A stretch of DNA of 47,746 nt from an uncultured Opitutaceae bacterium (GTDB taxonomy: Bacteria > Verrucomicrobiota > Verrucomicrobiia > Opitutales > Opitutaceae): contig CAIWXW010000130.1 in NCBI GenBank assembly GCA_903916755.1, forward strand, positions 1 to 47,746. The letters run 5' to 3'. Numbering within the stretch: position 1 is the first letter of the stretch; each line of letters begins with the position of its first letter. The notes under the pieces are model-generated. The model made no database searches. It was not told where the DNA came from and was given only the letters and a program-made list of their open reading frames with translations. The position numbers and the translations under genes are program-made. Positions 317 through 11,579 of this stretch are shown here, one piece after another.

Positions 317-853
317 ATGCCGCCCCAAGATCCCGCCGATGCCCGATGGTTCGAGGAGAATCTGAGGCCCCATGAGCGGATGCTGCGGGCCTGGCTGCGG
401 CGGCAGTTCCCGCTCGATGCCGACATCGACGACATCCTGCAGGAGTCCTACCTGCGGGTTTTGGCCGCCCGCCGGGCGGGCACGGTCGATTCGCCCAAGG
501 CGTTCCTCTTCGCCACGGCGCGCAACCTGGCCCTCATGAACCTCCGCCACCGGCGGGTCGAACGGTTGGATTCCTTAGCGGAAATCGACTGGTTGGGCAT
601 CTTGGATGAGCACGGGGATGTGGCCGAGGCGGCCGCCCGGGCCCAGGAACTCGAAATCTTGACCCAAGCCATCCAGTCGCTCCCCACCCGCTGTCGCCAG
701 ATTCTCACGCTGCGGAAGATCTATGGCTTGTCGCAAAGGGAAGTCGCGGCCGAGCTCGGCATTTCCGAGCACACGGTGGAGGCCCAGGGCACCATCGGCC
801 TGCGCAAGATCGGTGAATTCTTCGCCCGGCTCGCCCGGGGCCCCCGCCCATGA
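317..853 (+). CDS. ECF-type RNA polymerase sigma factor (FecI-like)
   Basis: A 178-residue extracytoplasmic-function sigma factor. Region 2 is visible near residues 25-75 (DDILQESYLRVLAA, then AFLFATARNLALMNLRHRR), and region 4 near 115-170 (LPTRCRQILTLRKIYGLSQREVAAELGISEHTVE), a helix-turn-helix that would read the -35 element. Length and order are normal for the family. Its stop overlaps the start of the FecR-like gene by four bases (ATGA), so the two are probably translationally coupled. With the TonB receptor behind them, the arrangement matches cell-surface signalling of the Fec type, in which the anti-sigma releases this factor when the receptor is occupied. What the receptor senses is not visible from the sequence. 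Confidence 0.95.
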   Translation: MPPQDPADARWFEENLRPHERMLRAWLRRQFPLDADIDDILQESYLRVLAARRAGTVDSPKAFLFATARNLALMNLRHRRVERLDSLAEIDWLGILDEHGDVAEAAARAQELEILTQAIQSLPTRCRQILTLRKIYGLSQREVAAELGISEHTVEAQGTIGLRKIGEFFARLARGPRP

Positions 854-1851
854 ACGACCCGATGGAACCCTCAGCGGCCGCGGAGCGGATCGAGCTCGAA
901 TCCGCCGCCTGGATCCTGCGCCGGGATCGCGGCCTGAGCGCGACCGAACAGGATGAATTTTCGCAGTGGCTGGCGGCCGACCCCCGGCACGGCGCCAGCC
1001 TGGCCCGTCATCGGCAAAACTGGGAGCGGCTCGACCTGCTCGTCAAGTGGCGCCCGGAGCATGCCGGCCACCCGAACCGCGACCTGCTGGCGCCGCGGCC
1101 CCTGCGCCACTGGGCGGCGCGGCATCCCTGGGTGGCGGCGCTCCCGCTGGCCGCCGCCGCGGCCGTGGCGGTGGGCCTCTTTGTGGGCCGCCGCCCGTCC
1201 CCGATGCCGGCGCCGATCGCGGCCGGGCCCAATCCGGTCGCGGCGATTGAACAGCACGCGCTGGAGGACGGATCGATCGTCGAGCTCAACCGGGGCGCCG
1301 AGGTCGCCGTCCTGTACACCACGGCCGAGCGGCACGTCCGGCTCGAGCGCGGGGAGGCGCATTTCACCGTGGCGAAGAATCCGGACCGTCCCTTCATCGT
1401 CAGCGTGGCCGGCGTGGACGTCCGCGCGGTGGGCACTCAGTTCGACGTGCGGCTCGAGCTGGGTGCCGTCGAGGTGCTCGTCACCGAGGGTCGGGTGCGG
1501 GTCGGATCGATACCGCTCGTCAAGGCGGGCGAGCGGGCGGTGGTATCGCTGGTGCCGGGTGGACCTCCGCCCCGGGTGGACGCGGTTGCGACGGCCGAGA
1601 TGGACCGCCTGCTCCTGTGGCGCCCGCAGCTGCTGGATTTCACCGGGGCGCCGCTGTCGGCGATCGTGGCCGAGTTCAACCGGCACAATGCGGCGGAGCT
1701 GGTGATCGCTGATCCCGCGCTGGCGAACACCCGGATCAGCGCGCTCCTGCGCTCGGACAACATCGACGGCTTCGTCCGGTTGCTTGAGCGCGGCTTCGAC
1801 ATTCGCGCTGAACGTTCAGGGAATATCATTCTTCTGCGCAAGTCGCAGTGA
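850..1851 (+). CDS. FecR-family anti-sigma / sigma regulator
   Basis: 333 residues in the classic FecR layout. The N-terminal cytoplasmic part (about 10-65, with the motif FSQWLAADPRHGASL) is the sigma-binding DUF4880-type segment. One membrane helix spans about 94-113. A periplasmic FecR domain covers about 135-240 (ERGEAHFTVAKNPDRPF, VGTQFDVR). A C-terminal STN/DUF4974-like domain lies at about 265-333 (LSAIVAEFNRHN). The start is fixed by the ATGA overlap with the sigma gene. By family knowledge it holds the sigma factor at the membrane and relays the state of the TonB receptor. A 151-base gap separates it from the receptor gene, room for a promoter read by the sigma factor, though I could not pick one out with confidence. 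Confidence 0.93.
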   Translation: MNDPMEPSAAAERIELESAAWILRRDRGLSATEQDEFSQWLAADPRHGASLARHRQNWERLDLLVKWRPEHAGHPNRDLLAPRPLRHWAARHPWVAALPLAAAAAVAVGLFVGRRPSPMPAPIAAGPNPVAAIEQHALEDGSIVELNRGAEVAVLYTTAERHVRLERGEAHFTVAKNPDRPFIVSVAGVDVRAVGTQFDVRLELGAVEVLVTEGRVRVGSIPLVKAGERAVVSLVPGGPPPRVDAVATAEMDRLLLWRPQLLDFTGAPLSAIVAEFNRHNAAELVIADPALANTRISALLRSDNIDGFVRLLERGFDIRAERSGNIILLRKSQ

Positions 1852-2002
1852 ACGAGGCCACTTGCGGAAAGCGCCGGCGAGCGTCCGGCGGGCCGCGGCG
1901 GCCGCCGGGTGCGCTTTGTGCTTCACGGCCCCGGTGGAGCCGGTGAATTCACTCTCAATGGCAAAAACTGTCATGGCCGGCCGACGCCAGTAGCCCTGAC
2001 CC

Positions 2003-5000
2003 ATGGAACTCCTTCTCCATGGGACGTGGCGGCGCGTCCGGTTGCTCCTGCCTCTCCTGCTCGCCCTGGGCCTCGGACTGCCGGCGCTCCGGGCGCAAAG
2101 CACCCGGGCGACGCCGCGGCCATTCGACGTCAAGGCCGGCGCCGCCGGCACCGCCATCAAGGAGTTCGCCAAGCAGGCCGCGATCGAGGTCATGTTCCCG
2201 ACGGAGCAGATGGACGGCGTGACCACGAACGCCGTTCGGGGCGAATTCACGCCCGGGCAGGCGCTGGTCCGGATGCTGGCCGGGACGGCATTCACGGTGA
2301 TCGAGGATTCCGGCTCCGGGGCCCTGGCGGTGCGCCGGGCCCGGCGCGCCCCCGACCCGAGCACGGTGGCGCGGGCGAAGGGAGGGGCGTCGCCGGCCCC
2401 CGCCAGCGCGGCGGGGCCAACGGTCAAGCTCGGCCCTTTCGAGGTGACCGGTTCGCACATCAGGCGGGTCGAGGGCGAGGGACCGGCGCCGGTGGTGGAG
2501 TATTCCCAGGCCACCCTCGAAGGCAGCGGCGCCCTGACGCTGGGTGCCTTCATGCAGAGCCTGCCTTTCGCCAGCGGAACGCAGGGCACGATCTACAATC
2601 CCAGCGGCTTCGGGCAGGGCGACTACGACCGCGGGGCCTCGACCCTCAACCCCCGCGGGCTGGGACCCCAGCGTGTCCTCATCCTCATCGACGGCCATCG
2701 CCCGGTCAATTTCGCCTCGCCCGACAGCACGGGGGCTGCGGTTTTCGACCTGGATAGCATCCCGCCGGAGGCGGTGGAGAGCATCGACTACCTGAAGGAC
2801 GGCGCCTCCGCGATCTATGGGTCGGACGCCATCGCCGGCGTGATCAACATCAAGCTGAAGCAGGACTACAGCGGACTCTCGACGGACTTCATGATCGGCA
2901 ACGTGCTGCAGCCGGGCGGGCAGGGGGGAGACCCCCTCGCGCGCAGCGCCAACCTCGTCGCCGGCGGGTCCGCCCACGGCACCTCCTACCTGGCCGACCT
3001 CCATTGGTTCAAGCAGACCGGCAACACCATCGCGGACTATCGGCGCTCCCGGAACACAGATTTCAGCGCGCTGGGGATCAAGGGCGCGGACGACAGCACC
3101 CAGTCCAGCTGGCCCTTCAACGTGGACCTGACTGCCGCGCAGGCGGCCGCGGCCGGCTTCGCCACGGGCGCCGGCTACTATGTCGTGAACGGCGGGACGC
3201 CCACGGCGGCGCCGACCCTGGCGCAGTTCGCGTACGCCGGGACCTCGAAGACAGCCATCACGGACGCCAACCGGTACAACTACGCGCCCACCTCCCAGAT
3301 CGTGCCGGACCAGGAGGACTGGAGCCTGCTGTTCAAGGAACGGCACGATTTCAACCCCGCAGTCTCCGGCTTCATCCAGCTGTTGGGTTCCGACGATCTG
3401 ACCGATTTTCTCTACACCCCCAATACGATCAATTCGTCGTCCGTCACGGTCAGCAACGCCTCCAGCCTCTCGGTCGGCGCCAATCCCGCCTACCTGTCGA
3501 TCCCGGCCAACAATCCCTACAATCCCTTCGGCAGCGCGCTCGGCGGCGGGAGCGGCGCCGGCAACAGTTTCCTCGGGCGGGCCCTGTTCGGCCCGACCCG
3601 CACCTATGCCATCGATTCGACCGCCTGCGACGGGGTGATGGGTCTGGACGGGGTGCTGGCCAGCGGCTGGAACTGGAACATCCGGGCGGCGGATCTCCAA
3701 AGTGCCTTCAATGGCACGCTGCCTGGCTTTCAGGGCAGCTTCCTCAATCCCTTCGGGCCCTCTGCGGACGAGGCGATGGTCAACCGGCTCTTTGTGACCT
3801 CGACCAGCACCGCCGAGGACCGCGCCTACGACGGCGAAGTTTCGGCCTCGGGCCCGGTCCTCGATCTTGGCGCTGGCAGCGTTTCCCTAGCGGCGGGCGG
3901 CGAATGGCGCCGCGAACAGCTGATCAACCATCCCGATACGGCCAACTATGTCGTCATTCCGGTGAGCAGCACGCCCTTCAGCGCGGGCCGCACGGTCACC
4001 TCTGAGTTCCTCGAGGTGGACGCTCCGGTCGGCGGGCGGTACCTCGAGTTGCAGGCCGCTGTCCGCCACGACGAATACAGCCAGTTCGGAGGCACCGCGA
4101 ACCCGAAGTTCGACGTGGTGTCGGAGCCGCTCGGATTCCTCAAGCTGCGGGCGTCCTATTCGGAGTCCTTCAAGGCGCCCGACCTGGGCCAGCTCTACAA
4201 CGAGCCGCTGATCACCTACAGCAGCACCCAGACCCTCGATCCCCTCAACCCGCTGGTGCCGGCGCAGCCGTATGCCCAGTTGACCGGCGGCAATCCGAAC
4301 CTCCAGCCCGAGAAGGGCAAGGTGGACTACCTGGGCGGCGTGATCGACCTCGATGCGGTCGTCAAGGGCCTGAGCTTCTCGGTGGACCACTACGCGATCA
4401 GCCTCAGCAACGTCATCTCGACCTTCAGCACCCCGGCGCAGCTCGAGGGCTCGTTTCCCAACCTGGTGGTCCGCGGCGCCCCGACCGCCCAGGCGCCGGC
4501 GGGCGTGATCCAGTACTTCGACTACGTGCCGGTCAATGCCGCGGCCTACTACTGGCGCGGCTTCGATCTGGGCGCGCGCTACGAGGTCCCCCCGACCCCG
4601 ATCGGCCGATTCGCGGTCGAGGTCGAGTCGACGCGGGTCACGTACTTTGCCTATGACGCCGGGACCGGGCAGGGACCGATCAACAAGGCGGGCCAGTACA
4701 ACGCCACGGGCAGCAGCGCCGGCGCCACCCCCCGCTGGACCGGCACGGTCCAGACGACCTGGAGCAAGGACCGGACCAGCGCCAGCCTCGCGATGGTCTA
4801 CAAGGGCCCCTGGAACGACAACGCCAACGCCCCGACCGCAGTCTGGGGCGAGAATCCCCTCACGCTCTTCAACGCCACGGTGTCCTACACGATCCCGCGC
4901 TGGCGCACGAAGATCACCCTGGCCTGCGACAACGTCTTCAACACCCAGCCTCCGCCGAACGCCTATGCGAGCCCCAGCGATGGGTTCGACGTCAGCACCT

Positions 5001-5056
5001 ACGGGGCCTGGGCCCTGGGCCGGTTCGTCAGCCTGCGGATCAAGAAGGACTTCTAG
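2003..5056 (+). CDS. TonB-dependent outer-membrane receptor with N-terminal STN domain
   Basis: 1017 residues. A signal peptide covers about 1-32 and ends LPALRAQ. An STN (secretin/TonB short N-terminal) domain follows at about 38-113 (FDVKAGAAGTAIKEFAKQA), then the plug at about 140-300 (VLILIDGHRPVNF, YLKDGASAIYGSDAIAGVINI) and a long beta-barrel ending in an aromatic residue (SLRIKKDF). STN-bearing receptors usually signal through a FecR protein, which fits the two genes upstream. The protein would bind an outside ligand and import it using TonB energy; the ligand cannot be read from the sequence. The ATG sits behind CCTGACCC with no Shine-Dalgarno. The next gene begins only seven bases after the stop, suggesting one transcript. 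Confidence 0.96.
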   Translation: MELLLHGTWRRVRLLLPLLLALGLGLPALRAQSTRATPRPFDVKAGAAGTAIKEFAKQAAIEVMFPTEQMDGVTTNAVRGEFTPGQALVRMLAGTAFTVIEDSGSGALAVRRARRAPDPSTVARAKGGASPAPASAAGPTVKLGPFEVTGSHIRRVEGEGPAPVVEYSQATLEGSGALTLGAFMQSLPFASGTQGTIYNPSGFGQGDYDRGASTLNPRGLGPQRVLILIDGHRPVNFASPDSTGAAVFDLDSIPPEAVESIDYLKDGASAIYGSDAIAGVINIKLKQDYSGLSTDFMIGNVLQPGGQGGDPLARSANLVAGGSAHGTSYLADLHWFKQTGNTIADYRRSRNTDFSALGIKGADDSTQSSWPFNVDLTAAQAAAAGFATGAGYYVVNGGTPTAAPTLAQFAYAGTSKTAITDANRYNYAPTSQIVPDQEDWSLLFKERHDFNPAVSGFIQLLGSDDLTDFLYTPNTINSSSVTVSNASSLSVGANPAYLSIPANNPYNPFGSALGGGSGAGNSFLGRALFGPTRTYAIDSTACDGVMGLDGVLASGWNWNIRAADLQSAFNGTLPGFQGSFLNPFGPSADEAMVNRLFVTSTSTAEDRAYDGEVSASGPVLDLGAGSVSLAAGGEWRREQLINHPDTANYVVIPVSSTPFSAGRTVTSEFLEVDAPVGGRYLELQAAVRHDEYSQFGGTANPKFDVVSEPLGFLKLRASYSESFKAPDLGQLYNEPLITYSSTQTLDPLNPLVPAQPYAQLTGGNPNLQPEKGKVDYLGGVIDLDAVVKGLSFSVDHYAISLSNVISTFSTPAQLEGSFPNLVVRGAPTAQAPAGVIQYFDYVPVNAAAYYWRGFDLGARYEVPPTPIGRFAVEVESTRVTYFAYDAGTGQGPINKAGQYNATGSSAGATPRWTGTVQTTWSKDRTSASLAMVYKGPWNDNANAPTAVWGENPLTLFNATVSYTIPRWRTKITLACDNVFNTQPPPNAYASPSDGFDVSTYGAWALGRFVSLRIKKDF

Positions 5057-5063
5057 GCCGCCC

Positions 5064-5621
5064 TTGAGGACCATCGCGTTTCTCTGCCTGGCGCTGGCGG
5101 GCGGGTTGTCCGCCGGCGCCAAGCCATCGGCCTGGGACGAGCCCTTTCCCGGCGTCGTCCTGGACGCGCGCAACATCCGGGGCTTCGTGGGCGAGTACCG
5201 CTGGCTCAGCAACTTCTACCCCTGCACCGTCGCCTACGAGGGGCTGGTCTACCGTTCCTCGGAAGCGGCCTATCAGGCGGCCAAGTTTTCGCCCGGGGCG
5301 CGGGCGGAATTCACGCAGCTGGACCCGGACTCGGCCAAGAAGCTCGCCCGCTCCCGGGCCTTCGACGCCGCGGCCTGGGACGCGCGCAAGGACCGGGTGA
5401 TGCGCGAGGTCGCCTGGGCCAAGTTCTCGCAGAATCCGGAACTGGGCCGCCGGCTGGCCGCGACCGGCGACCGTTACCTCGAGGAGACCAACTGGTGGAA
5501 CGACCCCTATTGGGGCGTCTACCAGGGGCAGGGGAAGAACATGCTCGGCCACATCCTCATGGAAACGCGGGCCCGCCTGCTTCGGGCGGCGTCCGTCCGT
5601 GACAACCCGGGTGCTCCTTGA
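5064..5621 (+). CDS. NADAR-domain protein with a predicted signal peptide
   Basis: A 185-residue protein read from a TTG start. The NADAR (YbiA-like N-glycosidase) fold is recognisable at about 40-175: RWLSNFYP, SSEAAYQAAKF, VMREVAWAKFSQNPELGRRLAATGD, then YWGVYQGQGKNMLGHILMETR. Known relatives cleave N-glycosidic bonds in riboflavin-pathway intermediates or remove ADP-ribose from guanine, and they act in the cytosol. Here the first 18 or so residues (MRTIAFLCLALAGGLSAG) form a hydrophobic leader ending in small residues, like a signal peptide. No in-frame ATG occurs before residue 113, deep inside the domain, so TTG at 5064 is the best start. The gene starts seven bases after the TonB receptor stop and overlaps the next gene by four bases (TTGA). 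Substrate is unknown. Confidence 0.85.
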   Translation: MRTIAFLCLALAGGLSAGAKPSAWDEPFPGVVLDARNIRGFVGEYRWLSNFYPCTVAYEGLVYRSSEAAYQAAKFSPGARAEFTQLDPDSAKKLARSRAFDAAAWDARKDRVMREVAWAKFSQNPELGRRLAATGDRYLEETNWWNDPYWGVYQGQGKNMLGHILMETRARLLRAASVRDNPGAP

Positions 5622-6682
5622 ACGCGCGGCTTAGGTCGGGGTGCCTCGCCCTGGCGCTGCTGCTGGCCGGCCCGCGGCCGGCGGCGCGGGCCTGGGGCGC
5701 CTGGGCGCACGAGCACATCAACCGGGGGGCGGTGCTGTCGCTCCCCGAGCCGCTCCGGACCTTCTTCTACAATCATGCCGACTTCATGACGGAGGAGTCG
5801 GTGATGCCCGACGTCCGCAAGAATCTGCTGAATGACAAGGCTGAGTTTCCCCGGCACAGCATCTTCCTGGAAAGCTATGGCCCCGATGCGCTCCGGTCGC
5901 TCCCCCGCACCTGGACGGAGGCGCAGCAGCGCTTTTCGCCGGAGACGCTGGCGAAGAACGGGACCCTGCCGTGGACGATCGAGGACCTGACGGACAAGCT
6001 GACCGAGGCCTTCCGCCGCCGGGACAAGGGCATGATCCTGTTCCTCGCGGCCTCGCTCGGCCACTACATCGGCGACGCCCAGGTGCCGCTGCACACCACC
6101 AGCAACAACAATGGGCAGTTCACCGGCCAGATGGACATCCATCCGCTGTTCGAGGGCCAGCTGGTGGAGATGTTCGGCCCGGGGTATGACCTCAACGCCG
6201 GCCCGGCGCCGTACTTCGCCGACCTCACCGGCACCACCTGGCGAATGATCGCCGCGACCCATGCCGCCGCCCTGACCCTGCTGCAGACCGACCTGGAGCT
6301 GCGCCATGCGACCCCGGAGGCGGAAATTTACCTGCGGGATGCCGCGGGGCGGCTGGTGCGCAACCGCTTTCTCCTGCTCTATTTCACCCGGAGCTACGCG
6401 GAGCGGCTGCACCAGCGGCTCGGCGGCATGGAGGAACGCTGCCTGCGCTCCGCCATCCTCGCCACCGCCGGCTACTGGAACACCGCCTGGGTGAACGCCG
6501 GGCGGCCCGACCTGTCGCGGCTCGACCCGGCGGCCACGACCGAACGGAATCGCCCGTCCCTGGTGGAAGAGGGCCGGCTCTGGGCGCACGGTCGGATGTT
6601 TGCGCTCGAGCCGCCGGCGGAGTTCGACCAAGCCTTGCTGGGCCCGGCTCCCACCGGGCCGGGCGCCGGCCCCCGCCCCTGA
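5618..6682 (+). CDS. Zinc-dependent S1/P1 nuclease or phospholipase C family enzyme
   Basis: 354 residues from a TTG start that overlaps the NADAR stop. The signal peptide ends at ARA, leaving Trp26 as the mature N-terminus, as in S1/P1 nuclease and bacterial phospholipase C, where that Trp binds zinc. The remaining ligands follow with S1/P1 spacing: His31 (+5), Asp65, His80, then His149, Asp153 and His159 (GHYIGDAQVPLH), and His175 with Glu179. The last ligand is Asp in S1/P1 nuclease but Glu in Bacillus phospholipase C, so the site mixes features of both groups. The enzyme should act in the periplasm or outside and release 5'-nucleotides or phosphorylated head groups. The downstream organophosphate antiporter fits either product. 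Family assignment is strong; nuclease versus lipase is open. Confidence 0.88.
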   Translation: MNARLRSGCLALALLLAGPRPAARAWGAWAHEHINRGAVLSLPEPLRTFFYNHADFMTEESVMPDVRKNLLNDKAEFPRHSIFLESYGPDALRSLPRTWTEAQQRFSPETLAKNGTLPWTIEDLTDKLTEAFRRRDKGMILFLAASLGHYIGDAQVPLHTTSNNNGQFTGQMDIHPLFEGQLVEMFGPGYDLNAGPAPYFADLTGTTWRMIAATHAAALTLLQTDLELRHATPEAEIYLRDAAGRLVRNRFLLLYFTRSYAERLHQRLGGMEERCLRSAILATAGYWNTAWVNAGRPDLSRLDPAATTERNRPSLVEEGRLWAHGRMFALEPPAEFDQALLGPAPTGPGAGPRP

Positions 6683-6719
6683 ACCCGCGGGTGCCCGCCC
6701 CGCGCGGCCCTTTCACCCC

Positions 6720-8087
6720 ATGTCCCTCCTGCAGTCCCTCGCCGCCCGGCTGGGCACCCAGCCGGCGGCGACGCCCCTCCGCGATCCCGTCGAGATTGAC
6801 CGGCGCTACCGCGCGTGGCGGGTCCGGGTCATGGTCTCCGCCATCACCGGCTATGCGCTCTTTTACTTCGTGCGAGCCAACCTCGGCATCGCCGCCCCCG
6901 CGATCACCCGGGAATTCCATTTCTCCAACACGCAATGGGGCCTGGTCCTCAGCGTTTCCACCATCGTCTACGCCTTTTCCAAGTTCCTGAGCGGCGTGGT
7001 CGGGGACCGGGCCAACCCCCGCTATCTGCTCGGGCTGGGTCTCTTGTTTTCCGCCCTCGTGAATCTGTGCTTCGGCCTGGGCGCGAGCCTCGGCTTCTTC
7101 GTCGCCTTCTGGGCGCTCAACAACCTCTTCCAGGGCAGCGGGGTCCCGCCCTGCGTGCGGCTCCTTACCTACTGGTTCAGCCCAAAGGAGATCGGACGCG
7201 CCTGGGGCCTGTGGAACGCCTCCCACCAGATTGGCGGCGCGATCATCCTCCTATGGGGCGGCTACCTGGTCAGCCATTACGGCTGGCGGTCGGCCTTTTG
7301 GGCGCCCGCCCTCGTGTGCATCGTGGGCGCGGTCGCCGTGATGCTCCGGCTGACGGACTCGCCCGAGTCCGAGGGCCTGCCGCCGGTCGAGGTCTACAAG
7401 GGTGAGGCGAAGAAAGAGGATGTGGCCGCCGCCATCCCGTTTCGGGCCATCTTCCGGACCCATATCCTCGGCAACGGCTGGGTCTGGGTCGTCAGCGTCG
7501 CCAATTTCTTCGTCTATGTGATCCGCATCGGCATCCTCAGTTGGGCGCCCAAGTACCTGACCGAGGCCAAGGGCTTCACCCTGCAGGACGCCTCCTTTGC
7601 GGGTGCCGCGTTCGAATTCGCCGGAATCTTTGGCGCCATCGCCGCCGGCTGGCTTTCGGATGTGGTGTTCAAGGGGCGCCGGGGCCCCGTTTCAGTCGGC
7701 TACATGCTCCTCCTGACGTTCGCCCTGCTCGCGCTGTTCCGGGCGCCTCCGGGGCATGTCCTCCTGATGTGCCTGATATTCACGGCGCTCGGCTTCCTGG
7801 TCTACGGCCCGCAGATGCTCGTGGCGGTGGCGGCGGCCGACTTTGCCACCAAGGTGGCGGCTTCCAGTGCCGTCGGTTTGACCGGGCTTTTCGGCTACCT
7901 CGGTGCCAGCTTCTGCGGGCTGGCGACGGGCATCCTGGTCGATCGATTTGGCTGGAACGGAGCCATCTGGCTCTATGCGGGCTCGTCGGTCGTCGGCTGC
8001 GTACTGCTCGCGACGACGTGGCACCGGGTGTCGCCTGTGATCCGCCCTGGCGGGCGGCCGGCCGCCCCGGCCGCCGCCGGGAGCTGA
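6720..8087 (+). CDS. GlpT/UhpT-type organophosphate:phosphate antiporter (MFS)
   Basis: 455 residues with about twelve membrane helices. It follows E. coli GlpT closely: YFVRANLGIAAP near the start, AFSKFLSGVVGDRANPR, GSGVPPCVRLL, and LPPVEVYKG in the central loop. Both arginines known to bind the phosphate group in GlpT have counterparts, Arg52 (YFVR) and Arg269 (YVIRIGILSWAPKYL). Known relatives exchange inorganic phosphate for glycerol-3-phosphate, hexose phosphates or pentose phosphates across the inner membrane. The ATG at 6720 lies directly behind TTTCACCCC, 37 bases after the nuclease/phospholipase stop; a longer frame exists upstream but would overlap that gene. The neighbours suggest it imports a phosphorylated product made in the periplasm. 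Confidence 0.92.
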   Translation: MSLLQSLAARLGTQPAATPLRDPVEIDRRYRAWRVRVMVSAITGYALFYFVRANLGIAAPAITREFHFSNTQWGLVLSVSTIVYAFSKFLSGVVGDRANPRYLLGLGLLFSALVNLCFGLGASLGFFVAFWALNNLFQGSGVPPCVRLLTYWFSPKEIGRAWGLWNASHQIGGAIILLWGGYLVSHYGWRSAFWAPALVCIVGAVAVMLRLTDSPESEGLPPVEVYKGEAKKEDVAAAIPFRAIFRTHILGNGWVWVVSVANFFVYVIRIGILSWAPKYLTEAKGFTLQDASFAGAAFEFAGIFGAIAAGWLSDVVFKGRRGPVSVGYMLLLTFALLALFRAPPGHVLLMCLIFTALGFLVYGPQMLVAVAAADFATKVAASSAVGLTGLFGYLGASFCGLATGILVDRFGWNGAIWLYAGSSVVGCVLLATTWHRVSPVIRPGGRPAAPAAAGS

Positions 8088-8183: not shown

Positions 8184-9098
8184 ATGAAACCCCTTCCCCT
8201 TGCCCTCTTGCTCGGCGGCCTGCTTGCGGCCGGCCTTTCCGCCCGCGCCAGCGACCCGTCCCCGCCGGTATCCCTCGAGGGTGTGATTGATTTTCACAGC
8301 CATTCCTCGCCGGACGTGACCAAGCGCTCCGTGGACAGCTTCGCGGTGGTGCGCAACGCGAAGGCGGCCGGCATGCGGGCTGTCGTGCTTAAGAACCACT
8401 ATGTCTCCACCGCTGCGCTGGCCGAGGTGGCCATGGACCAGGTCGGCGGCATCGAGGTCTACGGCGGCATCGTCCTGAACCGCTCCAATGGCGGCATCAA
8501 TCCCGAGGCGGTGCGCCGGATGGTGGAGGTGGAGGGCCATCGCGGCAAGGTGGTCTGGCTGCCGACCTTCGACGCGGAAAATCAGGTCAAGTTTGACCAT
8601 ACCGGCCGCCCATTCGTGCCCGTGGTCAAGGATGGCCGGCCAGTTCCCGCCCTGGCCGAGATTTTTCAGCTCGTGGCCGCCAACGACCTCATCTTCGCGA
8701 CCGGGCATTCCTCGCCCGCGGAGTCGCTGATCCTGCTCGACGCGGCCCGCAAGGCGGGAGTGAAGCGGCTGCTGGTGACGCATGTGCTGTCCGCCTCGAC
8801 CCGCGCCACGATCGAGCAAATGAAGCTCATGGCCGGCCTGGGTGCGACCTTGGAGGTGGTCTGGCTCGCCCATCTGGGAAATAATCCCCTCCCGGTATCG
8901 GTCTGCGTGCAGGCGATCCAGGCCGTGGGCGCCGAGCATTTCCTGATGTCGTCGGACCTGGGCCAGCCTGGCAATCCGGTGCATACGCAGGGACTCCGGG
9001 ACTTCATCACGGCGCTCAAGGCGGGAGGAATCAGCGATCGTGAGATTGGGCTGATTACCCGCCAGAACCCCGCGCGTCTGCTCGGGCTCGATCCGTAG
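8184..9098 (+). CDS. Exported DUF6282-like metal-dependent hydrolase
   Basis: 304 residues with a clear signal peptide (MKPLPLALLLGGLLAAGLSARA). The rest looks like a metallo-hydrolase barrel of the amidohydrolase/PHP type: DFHSHSSPDV at the first strand gives paired histidines, with later metal-type histidines in ATGHSSPAES and LVTHVL. It resembles DUF6282-family proteins, whose reaction is not established. The ATG at 8184 is preferred to a TTG six codons earlier because it starts the signal peptide cleanly and follows the CCACCCC tract seen at other genes here. It lies 96 bases after the antiporter on the same strand and may be the last gene of that cluster or a separate unit. Confidence 0.72.
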   Translation: MKPLPLALLLGGLLAAGLSARASDPSPPVSLEGVIDFHSHSSPDVTKRSVDSFAVVRNAKAAGMRAVVLKNHYVSTAALAEVAMDQVGGIEVYGGIVLNRSNGGINPEAVRRMVEVEGHRGKVVWLPTFDAENQVKFDHTGRPFVPVVKDGRPVPALAEIFQLVAANDLIFATGHSSPAESLILLDAARKAGVKRLLVTHVLSASTRATIEQMKLMAGLGATLEVVWLAHLGNNPLPVSVCVQAIQAVGAEHFLMSSDLGQPGNPVHTQGLRDFITALKAGGISDREIGLITRQNPARLLGLDP

Positions 9099-9245: not shown

Positions 9246-11579
9246 TCACCCCTCGATCACGGCGACTTCCTGGTCGAGAATGGAGCGCAGTTCAAAGCGC
9301 GTCCAGCCGTCGGCCGCGGCCAGCGCGGGCTTTTCTCCGGAAACGAGCAGGCGCAGGGAGCGGCCGCGCAGGTCGGCCGGCAGGCGGACCCCGATTTTCA
9401 ACGGGCCGACCGGGATCAATTCCTCCACGGGCCCGCGCCAGGTGGCGGCATTCGTCAGATTGACGAGGTGGACGATCGCGCGGCCGGGCTGGCGGTAAAG
9501 GTGGGCGTCGATCACGCCCGGGCCCTCGACGCTCAACGGAATGTCGTCGCGCGCGGCCCAGCGCAGCAGATTGCCGAGCAGGCGGCCGAAGTCGGCCGTG
9601 TTGGTGCGGGCATACCGGCGGTCGAGATCGGCGGCGAGGTAAGCCACGCGCCCAAAGCCGGGGCGTTCGTTCACGATCAGACCGGGAAGGTCGGTATGGT
9701 CATGCTGCGACCAGATCGCCTCGGGCGGCGCCGCCGGACGCGAAGGGACGAAGGTCAGCAGGACCGAGGCGGACGGATCGACCGTGAGCGGTTCGAGCGT
9801 GCCCCCAAAAAGCAGGAGGTCGGTCTCCTCGAAGCCCCGGAGCACCGGGTGGCGCGTCCCCGTGACGGGTGGCTCGCCGGCCATGTGCGGGCCAAACACC
9901 TGGGCGCGCAGCTCCGGGGTCAGGCGCAGGTAGGTCTGCTCGTTGGCCGCGGCCGACCGGCGGCGCGTCGCCTCGTGGCGCGCGCTATGGCTGGGAGGGA
10001 GGCTCACCCCGAACAGGTCCGCCAGGGCGAGGTCCGGGCGCGCATCGCCCCAGGAGTCGCACAGGCTGGCCGCCCCGCTCGCGATCAAGCCGCCGCCCTT
10101 TTGCACAAATCGGCGCACGCTGGCGACCTGCCCGTCGGTCAGGGTGCCGAGATTGGGCAGGATGAGCAGGCGCAGGCCGGCGGCATCGCGCTCGAGGTCG
10201 TCGGCGTGCACCATCTGATAGGGGATCCGCTCGCGCAGCAGCGCCTCAGTGAAGCCCCGCTGCGGCGCGCTGACCTGGGCCTCGGCGTCGTCGCGCCCGA
10301 AGAAGTCATGGTTCCGCTGGGAATAAAGGACTCCGACCGTCGCGAGCGGCTGTCGGTGCACGAGAAACTCCTCGTGGCGCGGGAGCCAGCCGCTCAGCGC
10401 GAGCGGCGTCGCGTACATGCGGCGGTCCTCGTGGTACGCGTTGATGAAGTGCCATTTCACCTGCATGCCGGCGGCGATGCCGTCGATCGCCCACAGCCGC
10501 ACCTCCGGTTCCGGTTTGCTGGCCAGGCGGAAATCGGACCCGCCGGCCATGGTCTCCGCCTCGTAGGTCGCGATGCTCTCCGGCGCGAGCTTGTCCCAGC
10601 CCAGCATGCCATTAACCAGCCGGCCGGTCACCCCGTTCGCCTCGAAACCCGTCCCGTCCGAGCGATGCTGGTTGTCGAGCATGAGGATCTTCACCCGGCG
10701 GCAAATCTCGCGATAGTCGCGGAAACCCTCCGCCGCGCCGGCAATGTTGCCGCCCATCTGGCCGACCCACAGGCAGTCCGGGCCTCCGGCGGCGCTCACG
10801 ACCCGGTTGTACTGGTCCCAGTTTTCGAGGCGGGAGGCGTAGCTCCATTCGATCCAGGCGCGAAAGGCGGTGTCCTTCCAATCCCAGGCCTGCGGCAGGC
10901 TGTGCCCGCGATCGGCCTGGAACTTGCCCTTGCAGTTGTCGCAGTAGCAGATGCTTTTCCGCGGCAGGCCGCTCCAGCTGTTGTCGGCGAAACCCTCCGG
11001 ATGATAGGTGCCGGCGATCTCGGTGAGGATCGCCGGAATATGCTCGCGGAAGTATCCGCCGTTGACGCAAGGCACGTAAAGATTGCGGGCGCGGTACGCC
11101 CGCCCGGTCGCGTCGACCGTGAACCACCCGGGGTGGGCCCGGTAGGCGGTGTCGTCGGCGCCATTCGAGTCCATGCGGGCGAAGACGGCGAGTCCGTCTT
11201 CGTGCGCGGCCCGGCACAACTCGCCGAACAGGTCGCGGTCGCCGAGAAACTGCGCGCGGCGCTGCCCGGGCACCCGGGTGGGATAGAACGCCACGATGCC
11301 GCCGGCGTTGACCACGATGCCTTGCGTCTGCGTGCGCTTCCACTGCGCGCGCCACCACGGCAGGTCGAAGCGCGTGGGGTCGAGCTCCGAGATGTTGATC
11401 AGCATCCAGCGCAGGGAGCGGCGATACCAGGGCGGGGCGCCGCGGGCCGGAGCGGCGTCGCCGGCCGCCAGGCGCAGCGGGCGCGCATAGGCGAGCATCG
11501 CGGTGGCGATCGCCGACTGTTTCAGGAAATTCCGGCGGCTGCTGCCGCCAGGGGTTGGAACCGGGGCATCGGAATTCAT
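9246..11579 (-). CDS. Tat-exported glycoside-hydrolase-like protein
   Basis: 777 residues. The N-terminus carries a twin-arginine signal (SRRNFLKQSAIATAMLAYA). A TIM-barrel-like region of about 60-420 contains WYRRSLRWMLINISELDPTR, GIVVNAGGIVAFYPTR and a CYCDNCKGKFQ stretch. It recalls the hypothetical glycoside hydrolase 6 group and other family-29/42-like barrels. A flavodoxin-like beta-galactosidase-trimerisation-type domain follows at about 450-600 (LILPNLGTLTDGQVASVRRFVQKGGGLIASG). No catalytic acid could be named, and the substrate is unknown. The ATG sits behind CCACCCCACCCC, one of the clearest C-rich leaders in the window. A long open frame on the plus strand across this gene is a GC-skew shadow. 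Confidence 0.75.
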   Translation of the reverse strand: MNSDAPVPTPGGSSRRNFLKQSAIATAMLAYARPLRLAAGDAAPARGAPPWYRRSLRWMLINISELDPTRFDLPWWRAQWKRTQTQGIVVNAGGIVAFYPTRVPGQRRAQFLGDRDLFGELCRAAHEDGLAVFARMDSNGADDTAYRAHPGWFTVDATGRAYRARNLYVPCVNGGYFREHIPAILTEIAGTYHPEGFADNSWSGLPRKSICYCDNCKGKFQADRGHSLPQAWDWKDTAFRAWIEWSYASRLENWDQYNRVVSAAGGPDCLWVGQMGGNIAGAAEGFRDYREICRRVKILMLDNQHRSDGTGFEANGVTGRLVNGMLGWDKLAPESIATYEAETMAGGSDFRLASKPEPEVRLWAIDGIAAGMQVKWHFINAYHEDRRMYATPLALSGWLPRHEEFLVHRQPLATVGVLYSQRNHDFFGRDDAEAQVSAPQRGFTEALLRERIPYQMVHADDLERDAAGLRLLILPNLGTLTDGQVASVRRFVQKGGGLIASGAASLCDSWGDARPDLALADLFGVSLPPSHSARHEATRRRSAAANEQTYLRLTPELRAQVFGPHMAGEPPVTGTRHPVLRGFEETDLLLFGGTLEPLTVDPSASVLLTFVPSRPAAPPEAIWSQHDHTDLPGLIVNERPGFGRVAYLAADLDRRYARTNTADFGRLLGNLLRWAARDDIPLSVEGPGVIDAHLYRQPGRAIVHLVNLTNAATWRGPVEELIPVGPLKIGVRLPADLRGRSLRLLVSGEKPALAAADGWTRFELRSILDQEVAVIEG

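What the first reader, a model, noticed from the sequence alone, without database searches (positions are those of the whole stretch)
317..8087. Surface-signalling operon pairing an exported NADAR protein with a zinc nuclease/phospholipase and an organophosphate antiporter
Sigma, FecR and STN-receptor genes are followed without real gaps by NADAR (seven bases), an S1/P1-PLC enzyme (four-base overlap) and a GlpT-like antiporter (37 bases). The set could form a route in which nucleic acid or phospholipid is cut outside the inner membrane, an N-glycosidase removes a base or ADP-ribose, and the freed sugar phosphate is imported in exchange for phosphate. The gene order is seen directly; the pathway is inference. 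I know of no described system with this combination.
Basis: partly seen in the sequence, partly recalled or inferred. Interest (0 to 1): 0.72.

Follow-up and report, generated by a model that had tools for sequence, protein, structure and literature searches.

The report
Uptake operon with exported NADAR enzyme
A few bacteria of one family share an uptake operon in which an enzyme of a normally cytoplasmic kind, which cuts bases off ribose, appears to be sent outside the inner membrane beside a sugar-phosphate importer, hinting at an untested way of feeding on nucleotides.

Summary
The gene order is real: sigma, FecR, TonB receptor, NADAR, zinc enzyme, GlpT/UhpC-type antiporter. It is not a one-off: 8 of 252 genomes of the window's family carry one exported NADAR clade (support 96/97), and in all 8 an orthologous receptor lies upstream and the antiporter downstream; 0 of 25 other NADAR loci show this within about 1.5 kb. 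Four of 8 insert AMP nucleosidase and one adds an exported LOG-type protein, families known (recalled) to release ribose 5-phosphate. New variant of a known kind of uptake operon; moderate to high interest.

The parts
317..853 (+). ECF sigma factor (FecI-like)
   Evidence: TIGR02937 83.5 bits, PF08281/PF04542 over cut-off; 59-62% identical to the sigma gene of two other clusters (G049, G519) but only 35-36% in three (G054, G523, G512)
850..1851 (+). FecR-type anti-sigma regulator, 4-base overlap with the sigma gene
   Evidence: PF04773 64.3 bits; 47-52% identical in G049 and G519, 34-36% in G054, G523, G512
2003..5056 (+). TonB-dependent receptor with an STN-like N-terminal region
   Evidence: PF00593 and PF07715 over cut-off, PF07660 STN sub-threshold; best receptor match in each of the 7 other cluster genomes is the NADAR-linked one
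5064..5621 (+). Exported NADAR-family N-glycosidase (TTG start, signal-type N-terminus)
   Evidence: PF08719 91.6 bits; N-terminal hydrophobicity 2.35; member of a supported exported clade
5618..6682 (+). S1/P1 nuclease - zinc phospholipase C superfamily enzyme (TTG start; signal-type N-terminus judged by eye)
   Evidence: W26 H31 D65 H80 H149 D153 H159 H175 E179 invariant in 13 rows; homologue L007 weakly matches PF02265 and PF00882; window protein itself under the cut-offs
6720..8087 (+). Organophosphate:phosphate antiporter (GlpT/UhpC/PgtP group of MFS)
   Evidence: PDB GlpT 1pw4 E 2.6e-85; TIGR00881 357 bits, below cut-off 407.75; equivalents of GlpT R45, K80, H165, Y266, R269 kept
8184..9098 (+). 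DUF6282 protein with a signal-type N-terminus (by eye), possible last gene of the transcript, not part of the conserved core
   Evidence: PF19799 204.4 bits; 96-base gap without a terminator-like site

Best explanation
A surface-signalled uptake operon for a phosphoribosyl-containing organophosphate (nucleotide, dinucleotide such as NAD, or ADP-ribose-like compound). Shown: the conserved gene set, its operon-like spacing, the signal-type N-termini, and the retained active-site residues. Inferred: the TonB receptor senses the compound through FecR and the sigma factor and brings it into the periplasm; an exported phosphodiester-type hydrolase (PF13449 protein in seven genomes, the zinc S1/PLC-type enzyme in the window) trims it to a 5'-phosphoribosyl unit; exported NADAR breaks the N-glycosidic bond; the antiporter imports the freed ribose 5-phosphate (or a related sugar phosphate) in exchange for phosphate. 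AMP nucleosidase or the LOG-type protein, where present, would do the same reaction on ordinary nucleoside monophosphates.
For: Eight of 252 family genomes have the clade (255-289 bits, next match 70 bits); all eight have receptor and antiporter at the cluster; gaps after the receptor are -11 to 66 bases, leaving aside the 96 before DUF6282 (start codons as chosen by my ORF script or the ORF listing). Clade support 96/97. Signal-type N-terminus in the 7 stand-alone members (hydrophobicity 2.2-3.1) against at most 1.77 in 23 other NADARs scored; the eighth is fused behind a PF13449 domain whose own start looks signal-type by eye. Residues matching reported ADP-ribose contacts and the catalytic glutamate (PMC11543638 section 12) are kept: E67, K74, K92, R96, W105, E141, D147, W150. 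AMP nucleosidase in 4 of 8: the G054 copy scores 409.6 with NF005500 (cut-off 264), the other three are 83-87% identical to it. LOG-type protein in G049: TIGR00730 181 vs 96, though under the LOG equivalog NF058542 (152 vs 300). The cluster's receptor is the best match to the window's in each of 7 other genomes. That NADAR/YbiA, AMP nucleosidase and LOG release ribose 5-phosphate is recalled enzymology.
Against: No activity, substrate or expression is known. AMP nucleosidase copies show no signal-type N-terminus by eye, so they would act in the cytosol, where imported ribose 5-phosphate needs no nucleosidase. What PF13449 proteins do is not established here. The window assembly has no PF13449 match. 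The window's antiporter groups with a congener's NADAR-free copy and has A and S where the six other cluster antiporters aligned have K and D at GlpT positions 46 and 274. The antiporter group occurs in 11 genomes, and 8 of those have no NADAR. The regulators are not uniform: sigma and FecR are only 34-36% identical in three clusters. One reported contact (D86 of the Phytophthora NADAR, adenine-side ribose) is not kept.
Confidence: 0.45

Rival explanations
1. General organophosphate scavenging (glycerophosphodiesters, phytate-like or nucleotide-sugar compounds): the antiporter imports glycerol phosphate or another sugar phosphate, and NADAR only clears a base- or ribose-bearing leaving group.
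For: Neighbouring loci in two cluster genomes are of this type: G523 has a receptor, two GDPD phosphodiesterases and a second GlpT-like gene next door; G054 has a second receptor, a second GlpT-like gene on the same contig and a PF01266 oxidoreductase. The antiporter group also sits beside a PF01663 phosphodiesterase (G018) and a His_Phos_2 phosphatase (G010) without NADAR.
Against: Does not explain why NADAR is in 8 of 8 clusters, nor why AMP nucleosidase or a LOG-type protein join it; the GDPD genes lie outside the cluster itself.
Confidence: 0.25
2. Periplasmic protection: exported NADAR removes ADP-ribose put on surface molecules or degrades NAD-derived toxins or signals, as cytosolic NADARs do in DarT1 systems.
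For: NADAR reverses guanine ADP-ribosylation (PMC11543638 and PMC11125620, passages); NADAR and SLOG domains share neighbourhoods in viruses (PMC9503650, section 30 part 1). Weak PADLOC match PDC-M42C, 42.5 bits.
Against: None of the cluster genes identified is an ADP-ribosyltransferase (not every flanking gene was scanned); the constant company is a receptor and an antiporter; the NF053876 antiphage model is far below cut-off (47 vs 240).
Confidence: 0.1
3. Salvage of flavin or riboflavin-precursor compounds from outside, with NADAR acting as the known riboflavin-intermediate N-glycosidase.
For: TIGR02464 68.7 bits, just under the cut-off of 73.7.
Against: No riboflavin gene among the cluster or flanking genes that the family scans covered; not every flanking gene was scanned. 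The intermediates are recalled to be unstable and cytosolic.
Confidence: 0.08
4. Coincidence or assembly artefact: unrelated genes brought together in one metagenome-type assembly.
For: No other genome searched has the window's exact set: the zinc enzyme is in 1 of 141 relatives and in none of the seven other clusters; none of 12 congeners has NADAR.
Against: The core recurs in 8 genomes of five genera with tight spacing; window genes overlap by 4 bases.
Confidence: 0.05

Closest known systems
FecI-FecR-FecA type surface-signalling TonB uptake operons
   Same: Sigma, FecR, receptor with STN-like region, then downstream genes
   Different: Cargo genes are an exported N-glycosidase and an organophosphate antiporter, not an iron ABC importer (that part recalled)
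NADAR / YbiA family (riboflavin-intermediate N-glycosidase, DarT1 antitoxin)
   Same: PF08719 domain with catalytic glutamate and phosphate-binding lysine kept
   Different: Signal-type N-terminus, conserved uptake context, own clade; below TIGR02464 and NF053876 cut-offs
GlpT/UhpC/PgtP organophosphate antiporters
   Same: Full-length sequence match and phosphate-site arginines
   Different: Below every equivalog cut-off; substrate unknown
S1/P1 nuclease and zinc phospholipase C superfamily
   Same: Nine-residue zinc ligand pattern (role of the residues recalled)
   Different: Below Pfam cut-offs; last ligand is E as recalled for PLC, while P1 and S1 have D there
Bacteroides ribose/nucleoside utilisation locus rus (recalled, paper not seen)
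   Same: Outer-membrane receptor plus enzymes that free ribose from nucleosides
   Different: SusCD based, with ribokinase and nucleosidases, no NADAR and no phosphate antiporter as far as recalled

Membership tests
NADAR (PF08719) | Domain score over the curated cut-off | tested here: met
   91.6 vs 35.1 bits
NADAR (PF08719) | Catalytic glutamate and phosphate-binding lysine | tested here: met
   E141 and K74 invariant in 8 rows, aligned to 8bau; residue roles from PMC11543638 section 12
Riboflavin-intermediate N-glycosidase (TIGR02464) | Equivalog cut-off | tested here: not met
   68.7 vs 73.7 bits
Riboflavin-intermediate N-glycosidase (TIGR02464) | Release of ribose 5-phosphate from early intermediates | not testable with these tools
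   needs purified protein
NADAR antitoxin of DarT1 | Neighbouring ADP-ribosyltransferase | tested here: inconclusive
   no such gene among the cluster genes identified; not every flanking gene was scanned
Organophosphate antiporter (OPA, GlpT/UhpC) | Phosphate-site arginines R45 and R269 (roles recalled) | tested here: met
   kept in 16 of 16 aligned antiporters
Organophosphate antiporter (OPA, GlpT/UhpC) | Curated score for a named transporter | tested here: not met
   TIGR00881 357 vs 407.75, glpT 336 vs 632.55, UhpC 349 vs 564
S1/P1 nuclease or zinc PLC | Zinc ligand set (pattern recalled) | tested here: met
   nine invariant positions in 13 rows
S1/P1 nuclease or zinc PLC | Family model cut-off | tested here: not met
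   window protein: PF02265 13.9 vs 29.5 bits, PF00882 not listed
FecI/FecR/STN surface signalling | Sigma, FecR and receptor with STN domain in a row | tested here: inconclusive
   all present, STN match 19.8 bits below the 28.4 cut-off

The most novel reading that the evidence does not exclude
These bacteria strip bases from nucleotides, NAD or ADP-ribose outside the inner membrane with an exported NADAR and import ribose 5-phosphate directly through a dedicated antiporter, under FecI/FecR control: to my knowledge the first extracytoplasmic NADARs, and a nucleotide-feeding route that keeps sugar and phosphate together.
Probability: 0.33. Interest if true: 0.75.

Novelty: new variant of a known kind. 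Interest (0 to 1): 0.62.

Why it matters
[quoted passage not shown] A conserved exported clade tied to an uptake operon gives a concrete, testable role, and would show bacteria harvesting ribose with its phosphate still attached from extracellular nucleotides or NAD. The PF13449-NADAR fusion also ties PF13449 proteins to a nucleotide-like substrate.

Tried and rejected
Idea that the zinc S1/PLC-type enzyme is the general partner of NADAR: rejected. It is in 1 of 8 clusters, in 1 of 141 relatives (the window's own genome), and its 12 homologues in other families of the phylum (13 of 387 genomes matched, own included) show no NADAR, receptor, antiporter, PF13449, AMP nucleosidase or LOG-type gene like those of the clusters within their fetched flanks (up to 1.5 kb). 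Structure prediction on a two-row alignment was useless (mean pLDDT 36), so no fold search was run and the second prediction job was not used; a viral-contig scan for more rows found none; a plasmid search found none. A profile search against solved structures gave only weak P1/S1 nuclease hits (E 0.65 and 0.84), used for the ligand comparison only. NADAR relatives in plasmids (56 records) and phages (458 records): the rows listed (10 and 5) reach at most 46% identity, against 54-65% for clade members; they were not put on a tree. The genome-contig scan with the zinc enzyme found one relative, a Chitinophagaceae bin without shared neighbours.

Papers: searches listed nothing that, by title and start of abstract, describes an exported NADAR or this operon. 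Several listings were partial (40 of 3,020 papers, many of them author names; 15 of 56; 10 of 12; 10 of 5,633), so absence from print is not shown.
Full report
What is there. The window is a whole contig (47,746 bases) of a 3.35 Mb, 227-contig genome, 93% complete with 3.9% contamination; no tool named the organism. Sigma 317-853, FecR 850-1851, TonB receptor 2003-5056, NADAR 5064-5621, zinc enzyme 5618-6682 and antiporter 6720-8087 follow one another with gaps of -4, 151, 7, -4 and 37 bases. NADAR and the zinc enzyme both start with TTG; NADAR's N-terminus scores as signal-type and the zinc enzyme's looks so by eye. A seventh gene, DUF6282 at 8184-9098, follows after 96 bases. No terminator-like site lies in the gaps after the receptor; the four found lie inside genes and do not exceed the shuffled mean of 4.7, and no sigma-70 promoter-like site was found.

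Family assignments. NADAR is clear (PF08719 91.6 bits). The antiporter matches GlpT of known structure at E 2.6e-85 and scores 357 with TIGR00881, 349 with UhpC and 336 with GlpT, all below the curated cut-offs, so the group is clear and the substrate is not. The zinc enzyme hits nothing over a cut-off. Its homologue in a Chitinophagaceae bin (L007, 40% identical) reaches S1-P1 nuclease (E 3.7e-5) and zinc phospholipase C (E 7.5e-4), both under cut-off. In an alignment of 13 rows (window, L007 and 11 of the 12 loci; L098, close to L093, was left out) the positions W26, H31, D65, H80, H149, D153, H159, H175 and E179 are invariant, the ligand pattern recalled for that superfamily. The last ligand is E, where P1 and S1 nucleases have D. 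A two-row structure model failed (mean pLDDT 36).

Recurrence. Searching the family of the window with the NADAR alignment gave 14 of 252 genomes with a match, of which eight score 255-289 bits and the next 70 bits. The same alignment found two such genomes among 384 of the class, and an eight-row model three among 372 of the order (the draws overlap). The eight form one clade in a 29-row tree (8 exported rows and 21 others; L027, L030, L031 and L086 of the 25 other loci were left out) with support 96/97 and 96% of 200 bootstrap trees; the program warned that a long-branched row, L022, falls next to this clade, a join that may be false. In all eight the receptor is upstream and the antiporter downstream. 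In G542 the contig breaks inside the antiporter and the receptor's reading frame is split in two. In 25 other NADAR loci there is no such neighbour within about 1.5 kb (some flanks are cut by contig ends). Signal-type N-termini score 2.2-3.1 in the seven stand-alone members and at most 1.77 in the 23 of 25 other loci that were scored. The eighth, G049, is fused behind a PF13449 domain whose own start looks signal-type by eye.

The conserved order. G519 and G054: sigma, FecR, receptor, PF13449, NADAR, AMP nucleosidase, antiporter. G541 and G542: the same from the receptor on, contigs ending before the regulators. G523 and G512: sigma, FecR, receptor, PF13449, NADAR, antiporter. G049: sigma, FecR, receptor, PF13449-NADAR fusion, antiporter, LOG-type protein with a signal-type start by eye. 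Window: sigma, FecR, receptor, NADAR, zinc enzyme, antiporter, DUF6282. Spacings after the receptor run from -11 to 66 bases, apart from the 96 before DUF6282; start codons are those chosen by my ORF script or the ORF listing. The receptor in the cluster is the best match to the window's receptor in each of the seven other genomes, at 643-849 bits, against 522 for the best other receptor in the ten genomes searched. Sigma and FecR are less uniform: 47-62% identical to the window's in G049 and G519, 34-36% in G054, G523 and G512. The window genome has no PF13449 match, while the seven others do, their best one being the cluster copy. Its AMP nucleosidase homologue (80%) lies on another contig.

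What argues against treating the window as a plain member. Its receptor is 47-48% identical to those of six other clusters compared, which are 66-81% identical to each other (G542 not included). Its antiporter is 80% identical to that of a congener without NADAR (G012) and 65-70% to those of the six other clusters aligned. It has A and S where those six have K and D at the positions equivalent to GlpT 46 and 274 (recalled as a salt-bridge pair in GlpT). One NADAR-free genome, G033, has the K-D type and is 74-84% identical to the cluster antiporters other than the window's, so that type is not exclusive to the clusters. None of 12 congeners has NADAR or the zinc enzyme. So the window may be a rebuilt version of the operon, with its genus's antiporter and a different hydrolase.

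Active site of NADAR. PMC11543638 (section 12 read) lists the contacts of ADP-ribose in the Phytophthora NADAR. Reading by eye the alignment to 8bau, whose numbering runs two ahead of the paper's (my inference that it is the same protein), the window has E67, K74, K92, R96, W105, E141, D147 and W150 at eight of eleven side-chain contacts, conservative changes at two (Y84 to F100, R93 to K109), and A102 for D86. The eight identical positions are invariant in the eight exported proteins. The enzyme is therefore likely to act on a phosphoribosyl or ADP-ribosyl compound; which one cannot be said.

Mechanism. The best reading is an uptake operon for a phosphoribosyl-bearing organophosphate. The constant parts are receptor, NADAR and antiporter. 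The variable parts are one exported hydrolase (PF13449 or the zinc enzyme) and, in five of eight, a further enzyme whose relatives are recalled to cut nucleoside monophosphates to base plus ribose 5-phosphate: AMP nucleosidase (G054 copy 409.6 bits with NF005500, cut-off 264; the other three 83-87% identical to it) or a LOG-type protein (TIGR00730 181 against 96, but under the LOG equivalog NF058542, 152 against 300). This convergence on one reaction is the main reason to prefer ribose 5-phosphate as the imported product. It is inference. The AMP nucleosidase copies have no signal-type start by eye, which does not fit neatly. A general organophosphate locus is the main rival: G523 has a neighbouring receptor, two GDPD enzymes and a second GlpT-like gene, and the same antiporter group sits beside a PF01663 phosphodiesterase in G018 and a His_Phos_2 phosphatase in G010 with no NADAR.

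Literature. Passages of PMC11125620, PMC11543638 (and its section 12) and PMC9503650 (and its section 30, part 1) were read. They describe NADARs as riboflavin-intermediate N-glycosidases, guanine de-ADP-ribosylating antitoxins and viral enzymes, and PMC9503650 notes SLOG-NADAR neighbourhoods in DNA viruses. None of the passages seen mentions export of a NADAR or an uptake operon. Searches, in an open-access library and partly seen as capped listings, showed no description of this set.

Verdict.

Noticed in passing
window 8184-9098: DUF6282 protein with a signal-type start directly after the antiporter; not found in the seven other cluster regions fetched, two of which end at or near the antiporter. 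Function unknown.
   Followed up: partly
L009 8434-10017: Natural fusion of a PF13449 phytase-like domain to a NADAR domain, a clue that the two act on the same substrate.
   Followed up: yes
L088 775-7606: Receptor, two GDPD phosphodiesterases and a second GlpT-like antiporter right beside the NADAR cluster, likely a glycerophosphodiester locus.
   Followed up: partly
L008 6320-7489: Gene with two adenylate-kinase matches in tandem next to the NADAR cluster of G054, on the opposite strand.
   Followed up: no
L010 10844-14653: NADAR domain at the start of a 1269-residue protein that by eye looks like a DNA methylase, downstream of a helicase-like gene; resembles a defence island. Not scanned.
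   Followed up: no
antiporters: Positions equivalent to GlpT 46 and 274 change together among 16 antiporters (K-D in eight; A-S, A-T, N-S, N-N or S-S in the others).
   Followed up: partly
phage records: NADARs of two very large uncultured phage records (about 600 kb) are 45-46% identical to the window's NADAR, higher than any of the 25 other bacterial loci that aligned (at most about 40%).
   Followed up: no
window 9246-11579 (-): GHL6/GH42M-type glycoside hydrolase with a TAT-type start, convergent with the operon.
   Followed up: no
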